From the NCBI GenBank assembly GCA_963922205.1, contig CAWUHX010000427.1:62001-126000 (forward strand): DNA of 64,000 bases, in the 5' to 3' direction. Made by a program: the position numbers and the translations under genes. Under the pieces are notes generated by a model that saw only the letters and a program-made list of their open reading frames with translations, was not told where the DNA came from and did not search any database. Below are positions 19,198-20,485 of this stretch, piece by piece; the first letter of the stretch is position 1; every line of letters begins with the position of its first letter. Origin of the DNA: Romanomermis culicivorax (lineage: Eukaryota > Nematoda > Enoplea > Mermithida > Mermithidae).

Positions 19198-20485
19198 TTG
19201 CCTACCAGCTCAATGTTTGTATATCAGTGGCTCACCCAACAAGCCTGCACTAATTTATTTTCTATGAAACTTAATCGGCTTGTTGTTGTGGTGCTGGTGT
19301 GCTCTAGACCCAAAGCAGACGCTGAAAAAAGGGGAATAAGTACTAAAATTAATAGTATCTTTCAATGTTCAGATTACAACGTCAAAAGGGTCGTAAGGAT
19401 CCAAGAACTGGATCAGTGGTTTAAAGCCACTTTTGGATACGGGCCAGCTAATCCCAAGGAACCACATATGGTAGACATAGGGAAAGTTAGCTAAGTACTC
19501 CACTTTATCCAAGAAGTATTGATCTTCAAAGGACAACCAGTTTGTGGATTTGACGTCGAAAAGGTCCATCACGATAAAGTTGCTGCCTTGTTCAAGATGA
19601 GAGAGGTCGACAATCGGATGGGAAAAGAATTTGCCCAATACGTAAGCTTCGCACTCACCAAAGCCAGACATATGTCATTGATACCACAACCTTAATGGTC
19701 AAGGAATGGGCAAGCCTCCATGATTCCCTGAATTCCAACATGCTATTCGCCAGATATTTGGTATGGGAGGATTTGGTAAGTATCTATAATGTATGTGGTT
19801 CAGGGCCAGACAATAAGGATAGGGACAAAACTGTCCCATTACGGGAACATCTAAGGAAGACCAAGGGTCGATACTTTGATCTAGACCATTTGGCCTTGAC
19901 CATGGTAGGGGTTAACCTAGAGAAAAAATGTTTTCAGATGGGTATTTGTCTCGAAACCTTTCGGTTAAAGGGATTGTTCATGGAATTTTACCTAATAGAT
20001 GTGGGCCCTATCAGTATGATTTTTCACTAAAGGCGAACTGTGATTGGTTTGCCAAGAAAGGAATATTGCCGGAAGAGCTTAGGTACGCAGCTCTAGACTT
20101 GTATTATTCACTATTGGTCATGTTTGCTGCGATTCACTATGGCATGGCCCATCAGCTGCTCATGCAAATACAGATTTTCGATCATGACAAGATTGATCCC
20201 AAGCAGATCAACACTGTAGCCCTTCATTTTTTGCAGCAATATTCAGTAATACCAGGGCAGGTGAATAGAGAAATGGGGCTAGGTTCCCCAGTAATGGAAA
20301 CGGATCAGGTACAGCCGAATAAGGTGTACCATATGATGAAATGTGAAATGTATAACTGTTGGGCAGTACAAATGCAGGGAAATAACACCGGTTATAATAC
20401 CGCACCTACGGAATGTAACCCCGTTCGTCCTCAAGGCGTTCAATTGCCAAGTGGTTCTTACCCGCTACTCCTGAGAGATAGCTAA
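19198..20485 (+). pseudogene. DEDDy 3'-5' exonuclease-like domain in LTR element 1
   Basis: The domain resembles the WRN/EXD2 type 3'-5' exonuclease fold (Pfam DNA_pol_A_exo1 type). Motif I is QPVCGFDVEK, with the Asp/Glu pair at about 19552-19560. A motif-II-like stretch CGSGPDNKDRDK leads to a YFDLDHLALTM segment. Motif III is DWFAKKGILPEELRYAALD, carrying the Tyr and Asp of the YxxxD signature (20084-20098). Such enzymes remove nucleotides from nucleic acid 3' ends. The region is spread over three frames: one stop (TAA 19492-19494), a shift near 19692 and a one-base shift at the A6 run 19923-19928. It lies on the pol strand between the LTRs, so it is element cargo. The assignment rests on motif reading, not a database search. 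Confidence 0.65.

What the first reader, a model, noticed from the sequence alone, without database searches (positions are those of the whole stretch)
19198..20485. A DEDDy 3'-5' exonuclease-like domain carried as cargo by a Ty3/Gypsy-type LTR retrotransposon
Between integrase and 3' LTR of element 1, on the pol strand, the sequence reads GFDVE (motif I), CGSGPDNKDRDK (near motif II) and DW...RYAALD (motif III), the order and spacing style of WRN/EXD2-type exonucleases. Established: DEDDy enzymes trim 3' ends and DnaQ-like proofreading is known in large RNA viruses. Inference: an LTR element with its own exonuclease could process cDNA ends, proofread, or counter host small RNAs. I know of no standard retrotransposon class with this module.
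Basis: partly seen in the sequence, partly recalled or inferred. Interest (0 to 1): 0.88.

Follow-up and report, generated by a model that had tools for sequence, protein, structure and literature searches.

The report
Exonuclease gene carried by nematode retrotransposon
A broken copy of a virus-like jumping element in a mosquito-parasitic nematode carries, after its normal genes, a gene that begins with a 3'-5' exonuclease-type domain, and sister copies still keep that domain under selection; the same kind of cargo was already described in rotifers, so this is a nematode variant of a known oddity.

Summary
The window lies in the Romanomermis culicivorax assembly (359,112,060 bp, 595 contigs). 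Element 1 (11826-24281) is an old, decayed Ty3/Gypsy-type LTR element (LTR K2P 0.20). The exonuclease-like domain is real. It lies in three reading-frame pieces at about 19369-20236, at the head of a long ORF3 region reaching about 23599. The domain itself does not match Pfam PF01612, even in the three unbroken copies tested. It is homologous to a Gypsy-linked sister family that does (45.5 bits against 9.4 for the best of 20,000 shuffles; sister PF01612 E 1.5e-7). Both structure predictions failed (pLDDT 35.3 and 36.5). It is no single capture: 150 further-scored places reach E below 1e-95, dozens in frames above 1,500 codons. Three copies examined have LTRs 99.5-100% identical, and six give exo dN/dS 0.06-0.30. 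DEDDy ORF3s in LTR retrotransposons were published for bdelloid rotifers in 2017 (PMC5408684). Verdict: observation partly confirmed, interpretation partly supported, new variant of a known kind. Substrate and catalysis untested.

The parts
11826..12384 (+). 5' LTR of element 1
   Evidence: direct repeat with 23664-24281, 82.5% identical over 555 ungapped columns, K2P 0.20
12411..14184 (+). gag-like ORF fragments
   Evidence: ORFs; annotated R. culicivorax protein P0027 matches 12633-12830 and also 19809-19910 and ORF3; no Pfam search made of these ORFs
15146..15424 (+). aspartyl protease
   Evidence: PF13975 E 7.5e-10
16288..16503 (+). reverse transcriptase, truncated; the rest of RT and RNase H were not found in this copy
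   Evidence: PF00078 E 2.8e-12, partial; a sister copy keeps RT and RNase H
16880..17699 (+). integrase fragments
   Evidence: PF13683 E 7.8e-05 on 17313-17696, below its curated cut-off; 17033-17245 and 17307-17696 resemble the integrase frames of element 2, E 5e-7 and 6e-8; fragment P0022 matches 16880-17020
18578..18697 (+). possible short upstream ORF3 exon (starts MGKG, followed by GTAAGT)
   Evidence: open frame read; gene models P0017, P0028 and P0029 join parts of 18397-18898 to ORF3; no RNA evidence
19371..19372 (+). possible 3' splice acceptor AG just before the exonuclease domain
   Evidence: sequence; TTTAG|AT at the same place in the 5 loci printed; several gene models have a junction about here (by eye); inference
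19369..19668 (+). exonuclease domain, piece A, with motif I (Asp 19552, Glu 19558); holds an in-frame stop
19659..20006 (+). exonuclease domain, piece B, with motif II Asp at 19770 (WEDL)
20003..20236 (+). exonuclease domain, piece C, with motif III Tyr 20084 and Asp 20096
20237..23599 (+). rest of the ORF3 region (interrupted): acidic and glutamine-rich low-complexity stretches; no Pfam match above cut-off
23664..24281 (+). 3' LTR of element 1

Best explanation
Element 1 is a decayed copy of a high-copy Ty3/Gypsy-type family in R. culicivorax that has moved recently. Its third gene (ORF3, an open frame of about 1,520 codons in many copies) begins with a DEDDy-type 3'-5' exonuclease domain and, in the copy read to its end, finishes in an RGG-rich tail. 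SHOWN: position after integrase, presence across the family, retained D-E-D-D-Y residues, purifying selection, homology to a PF01612 family. INFERRED: ORF3 is made from its own, probably spliced, mRNA; the RGG tail holds RNA; the domain is an active nuclease that trims 3' ends of nucleic acid during the element's cycle. I think RNA ends are more likely than cDNA ends, because of the RGG tail and because the nearest solved relatives of sister family II include Mut-7 and Rrp6 as well as WRN.
For: Homology: family III profile against the unbroken family I domain, 45.5 bits (best of 20,000 shuffles 9.4); BLASTP E 4e-12 at a set database size of 1e5; hhalign probability 90%, E 1.5e-6; in reverse, 7 of 12 family III fragments score above the best of 20,000 shuffles with the family I profile. 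One family III ORF matches PF01612 at 31.8 bits, cut-off 23.6, and family III lies after Gypsy pol domains on the same strand in 3 of 3 loci examined, of 7. Family II matches PF01612 (E to 1.7e-13), and its profile finds WRN, Mut-7 and Rrp6 in the PDB. Family-wide: all 150 scored places at E below 1e-95, of 2,997 candidates. Fragments from the older annotation join ORF3 to gag, the integrase region or an LTR. Activity and constraint: LTRs 99.5-100% identical in 3 hand-picked copies; exo dN/dS 0.06-0.30 over 15 pairs of 6 loci, beside RT 0.04-0.18 and PR 0.05-0.11 over 3 pairs. Motifs I, II and III recognised in 10 of 11 top-scoring loci, one of these with Asp to His in motif I. RGG tail.
Against: Family I itself never reached PF01612: window pieces, 5 of 72 annotated fragments, 3 unbroken domains. 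Its profiles and fragments find only the Mut-7 homologue among DEDDy enzymes of the PDB, at E 0.18-0.86; profile A3 and an intact sequence find none. Against enterobacterial RNase D, hhalign gives probability 0.3%. Both AlphaFold2 models are unusable (pLDDT 35.3 and 36.5). The family I profile does not lift family II above shuffles, and 5 of 12 family III fragments (some short) stay below the best shuffle. In annotated older fragments the motif III Asp is kept in only 3 of 7 (Glu 3, Asn 1). No RNA, protein or enzyme data. The splice model rests on gene predictions.
Confidence: 0.7

Rival explanations
1. The domain is active but its target is the host: it trims small RNAs that silence the element. 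R. culicivorax lacks Piwi, and nematodes outside clade V lack HENN-1, which caps small-RNA 3' ends, so these ends could be open to a 3'-5' exonuclease.
For: Nearest solved relatives of sister family II include the Mut-7 homologue. PMC4323106 (passages) reports no PRG-1/Piwi in R. culicivorax and no HENN-1 outside clade V. RGG tail. High copy number.
Against: No small-RNA data examined. Mut-7 type enzymes also act for silencing (PMC5408684 passage on C. elegans mut-7). Pairwise dN/dS shows constraint and no sign of an arms race, although it would not detect one at single sites.
Confidence: 0.25
2. The domain is a catalytically dead RNA-binding derivative, as Maelstrom and EXD1 are in animals (comparison as given in PMC5408684).
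For: Motif III Asp replaced in 4 of 7 older fragments; one of 11 genomic loci has His in motif I; strong divergence from PF01612.
Against: All five catalytic positions stand in 9 of 11 genomic loci and in the window copy itself.
Confidence: 0.18
3. Passenger: a host gene fragment captured once, or a chance motif set, with no role for the element.
For: No piece matches Pfam alone; the copy is decayed.
Against: Family-wide presence, homology to PF01612 families, dN/dS 0.06-0.30, three Gypsy-linked exo lineages.
Confidence: 0.02
4. ORF3 mainly replaces env or has a structural role, with the exonuclease fold incidental.
For: It stands in the env position; the parts of ORF3 scanned have no known domain.
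Against: Constraint on the exo domain is close to that on the 561 codons after it (0.13 and 0.09, one pair); the tail looks RNA-binding, not membrane-bound (by eye; no transmembrane prediction run).
Confidence: 0.1

Closest known systems
DEDDy ORF3 of bdelloid LTR retrotransposons Juno and Vesta (Rodriguez, Kenefick, Arkhipova 2017, PMC5408684; abstract, outline, passages and section 3.6 read)
   Same: LTR retrotransposon with a DEDDy-type exonuclease ORF after pol; acquired at least twice in one genome; authors mention 3'-end processing of element RNA and a silencing role as possibilities
   Different: Different phylum; bdelloid full-length copies are scarce, here family I is high-copy and three copies examined have near-identical LTRs; here the domain heads an ORF3 of about 1,520 codons with an RGG tail. 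[quoted passage not shown] They note DEDD changed to DEED; here Asp stands in motif II in 10 of 11 loci. Direct sequence comparison not done
Athena/Terminon giant retroelements of bdelloids (PMC6431247, passages read)
   Same: retroelements carrying a DEDDy exonuclease among extra ORFs
   Different: Penelope-like, telomeric, endonuclease-deficient; not Gypsy
Dada DNA transposons with DEDDy domain (PMC3706591, passages read)
   Same: mobile element with DEDDy exonuclease
   Different: DNA transposon; domain inside the transposase
Cellular WRN / Mut-7 / Rrp6 / RNase D exonucleases (PF01612)
   Same: motifs D-x-E, D, Y-x3-D; sister families II and III match PF01612
   Different: family I itself scores below PF01612; encoded by an LTR element and fused to ORF3

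Membership tests
DEDDy exonuclease superfamily | four acidic residues plus Tyr in three ordered motifs | tested here: met
   window: Asp 19552, Glu 19558, Asp 19770, Tyr 20084, Asp 20096; 9 of 11 genomic loci keep all, 1 has His in motif I, 1 (L099) matched no pattern
DEDDy exonuclease superfamily | homology to accepted members | tested here: met
   to family III, itself PF01612 E 1.5e-7: 45.5 bits against 9.4 best of 20,000 shuffles; hhalign probability 90%; to family II weaker: 12.3 bits against 7.9, hhalign probability 37%
DEDDy exonuclease superfamily | RNase H-like exonuclease fold | tested here: inconclusive
   AlphaFold2 pLDDT 35.3 and 36.5; no fold search made on such models
DEDDy exonuclease superfamily | metal-dependent 3'-5' exonuclease activity | not testable with these tools
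   needs protein
Pfam PF01612 (DNA_pol_A_exo1) | score above the curated cut-off of 23.6 bits | tested here: not met
   no hit for window pieces, 5 annotated fragments or 3 unbroken domains; not filed as a PF01612 member, only as homologous to families that are
Ty3/Gypsy LTR retrotransposon | LTRs and order PR-RT-RH-IN | tested here: met
   window: LTRs, PR, partial RT, IN fragments; one sister copy PR 802-894, RT 1183-1342, RH 1434-1535, IN 1781-1950 of one frame; TG...CA ends and apparent 4-bp target duplications in 3 of 3 copies, read by eye
bdelloid-type DEDDy ORF3 elements | DEDDy ORF located after pol in an LTR element | tested here: met
bdelloid-type DEDDy ORF3 elements | exonuclease closer to other retroelement DEDDy ORFs than to cellular ones | not tested
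   bdelloid sequences were not fetched; no rotifer protein appeared, whose reach is limited

The most novel reading that the evidence does not exclude
In a nematode without Piwi and, by its clade, without the HENN-1 cap on small RNAs, Gypsy elements have radiated with a set of exonucleases that clip the open 3' ends of host silencing RNAs: a transposon-encoded anti-RNAi nuclease, which would also explain the high copy number of family I.
Probability: 0.2. Interest if true: 0.85.

Novelty: new variant of a known kind. Interest (0 to 1): 0.55.

Why it matters
DEDDy cargo was described in bdelloid rotifers, where full-length copies are scarce and the selection test did not include the DEDDy ORF (PMC5408684). 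Here it occurs in another phylum, in a high-copy family that moved recently, at the head of a long protein with an RNA-binding-looking tail, and under purifying selection. That makes it a better system for asking what an LTR element does with its own 3'-5' exonuclease: end processing, or defeat of small-RNA silencing. Three Gypsy-linked exonuclease lineages (I, II, III) in one genome, with exo and pol relationships agreeing roughly (I nearer III than II in both), suggest long association rather than one accident.

Tried and rejected
Direct Pfam, NCBIfam and PDB searches of single pieces and annotated fragments: no significant match. Profile against 81 enterobacterial RNase D proteins: only 12 columns around YAALD aligned. 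AlphaFold2 on fragment P0007 (lacks motif II) and on an unbroken domain with 22 rows: low confidence, no fold search. Element 2 of the window (47821-61472) was checked as a possible second carrier: no exonuclease similarity at E 0.01, only pol. Idea of an insertion between motifs II and III (from the family II alignment) dropped: family III has a comparable segment. Searches for an earlier nematode report: (held open-access library only); none found among the listings. The 2017 Terminon paper itself was not seen (recalled).

Full report
WHERE THIS IS. The three protein searches list 8, 21 and 54 proteins, overlapping, 72 in all; 71 are labelled R. culicivorax and for one (P0040) the label is cut off before the organism. 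The window's assembly has 359,112,060 bases in 595 contigs, the figures printed for R. culicivorax version 2 (359.1 Mb, 595 scaffolds; PMC10879605, passages). The window is contig 427, 62001-126000. R. culicivorax is a mermithid nematode that parasitises mosquito larvae.

ELEMENT 1. LTRs lie at 11826-12384 and 23664-24281, 82.5% identical over 555 ungapped columns, K2P 0.20. Between them are gag-like fragments, an aspartyl protease (PF13975 E 7.5e-10), the first part of a reverse transcriptase (PF00078 E 2.8e-12) and integrase fragments (PF13683 E 7.8e-05, below its cut-off). The rest of RT and RNase H were not found, and the reading frames are interrupted, so this copy is a relic.

THE DOMAIN. 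BLAST-anchored rows of 50 annotated fragments and three window pieces (two overlapping BLAST pieces were dropped there, and one badly aligned fragment row before the profile) give: motif I Asp in 17 of 22 rows and Glu in 20 of 24, motif III Tyr in 8 of 8 and Asp in 3 of 7. In the alignments to families II and III the Asp of (W/L)EDL falls on the motif II Asp; it stands at 19770, and LEDL is in 7 of 7 fragment rows that reach it.

IS IT A DEDDy DOMAIN? The direct test fails: window pieces, 5 of the 72 annotated fragments and the unbroken domain of three other copies do not match PF01612. The test through relatives passes. The genome has 80 matches to PF01612 at E up to 0.001, each marked over the cut-off. 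Of the 26 that I fetched as loci (8, 18), 19 belong to one family, here called II: 6 of the first 8 by a motif scan, the other 2 (L085, L087) by their places in the list, and 11 of the 18 by its profile. The other 7 of 18 resemble each other and form family III. I recognised no host gene among these 26; exon-split host genes may be missed. Family III's profile against the unbroken family I domain gives 45.5, 44.8 and 43.2 bits for three copies; the best of 20,000 shuffles gives 9.4; hhalign gives 90% and E 1.5e-6 over 247 columns. In reverse, with the family I profile, 7 of 12 family III fragments beat the best of 20,000 shuffles and 5 do not. One family III ORF scores 31.8 bits against PF01612, cut-off 23.6. 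Family II's profile finds WRN (E 7.8e-6), Mut-7 homologue (5.5e-5), Rrp6 (0.005) and RNase D (0.31) in the PDB. Family I to II is weaker: BLASTP E 0.004 in a single comparison, 12.3 bits against 7.9 for the best of 20,000 shuffles, hhalign probability 37%, E 3.5e-4, and in the reverse direction not above shuffles. A fourth lineage (676-codon ORF in L139) matches family I at BLASTP E 3e-15 in a very small comparison set; it has no PF01612 match, and whether it lies in an element was not examined. Structure prediction gave nothing usable.

NOT A SINGLE CAPTURE. The search with the window's motif III piece scored 150 of 2,997 candidates, all at E below 1e-95 (the window itself among them), dozens in frames of 1,510-1,529 codons. 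Gene models in the older annotation join ORF3 to gag (P0027), the integrase region (P0017, P0022) and LTR (P0018, P0019). Three copies that I picked for their long frames have LTR pairs with K2P 0, 0.0016 and 0.0049, TG...CA ends and, read by eye, 4-bp target duplications; they are about 14.7 kb long. One gag-pol frame, read in one copy, gives PR, RT, RH, IN in order. The last part of ORF3, read in one copy, has no Pfam match and ends in RGG-rich sequence. In family II, 3 of 3 loci whose flanks I fetched have flanking direct repeats (620 bp at 99.8%, 617 bp at 96.9%, 383 bp at 98.2%). RNase H was found upstream in 3 of 3 and integrase similarity in 3 of 3; the two long frames scanned show a zinc knuckle but no RVT_1 match. 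In family III, 3 of 3 loci examined (of 7) have Gypsy pol domains upstream on the same strand: PR and RT in 2 of 3 each, RH and IN in 3 of 3. No LTR pair was found in the stretches fetched (0 of 3).

SELECTION. In 6 of the 11 top family I loci the domain was open in one frame by my pattern; over 15 pairs dN/dS is 0.06-0.30. Family II (8 loci) gives 0.04-0.16 over 27 of 28 pairs with a defined dS, though many dS values exceed 1 and are saturated. For one pair of copies exo is 0.13 beside RT 0.18 and PR 0.11; over three pairs RT is 0.04-0.18, PR 0.05-0.11, RNase H 0.02-0.06 and IN 0.00-0.03. So the exonuclease is held at protein level about as strictly as protease and RT, and less strictly than RNase H and integrase. 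These loci are the best-scoring ones, not a random sample.

HOW IT MOST LIKELY WORKS. Shown: an ORF3 with a DEDDy-related domain at its head, kept by selection in a recently moving family. Inferred: the gene models and an AG just before the domain suggest a spliced ORF3 message; the RGG tail suggests RNA binding; the retained residues suggest activity. I commit to a 3'-end nuclease working on RNA in the element's cycle, with cDNA-end trimming as a close second. Host small RNAs are the bolder target: R. culicivorax lacks Piwi, and nematodes outside clade V lack HENN-1 (PMC4323106, passages), so 3' ends may be unprotected. Nothing here tests the substrate.

WHAT IS KNOWN. Rodriguez et al. 2017 (PMC5408684; abstract, outline, passages, section 3.6) report DEDDy ORF3s in bdelloid Juno and Vesta LTR retrotransposons, acquired at least twice and shared with Athena elements. 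They mention 3'-end processing and a silencing role as possibilities. [quoted passage not shown] PMC6431247 (passages) and PMC3706591 (passages) give Terminons and Dada transposons. New here, as far as seven searches of an open-access library show: the nematode host, the long RGG-tailed ORF3, the high copy number with recent insertions, the selection signal on the exonuclease, and three Gypsy-linked exonuclease lineages in one genome. I call it a new variant of a known kind.

Noticed in passing
window 47821-61472: Element 2 is a different LTR element (LTRs 87% alike) whose + strand holds ORFs with glycoprotein-like cysteines and a hydrophobic stretch (by eye) at 53406-56105 before protease, RT and integrase, an unusual order; no Pfam match for three of these ORFs.
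   Followed up: partly
L090, L092, L094 (contigs 69, 344, 440): Family II elements (about 7.5 kb on contig 69) have RNase H, integrase similarity and an exonuclease ORF, but no RVT_1 match in the two long frames tested, so they may be non-autonomous.
   Followed up: partly
L139, minus strand: A 676-codon ORF with a fourth, diverged DEDDy-like domain (GFDTE ... YAALDAYY), similar to family I but below Pfam detection.
   Followed up: partly
genome G000, one search list: The family II search shows graded relatives at about 43%, 34%, 30% and 26% identity, many with open frames of 400-667 codons: a large, diverse set of DEDDy-type ORFs whose surroundings I did not check.
   Followed up: no
window 12147-12241 and 24003-24097: Both LTRs of element 1 hold a GTAAGT-type splice donor motif (CAAGTAAGTC), which could serve a spliced ORF3 message (sequence).
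   Followed up: no
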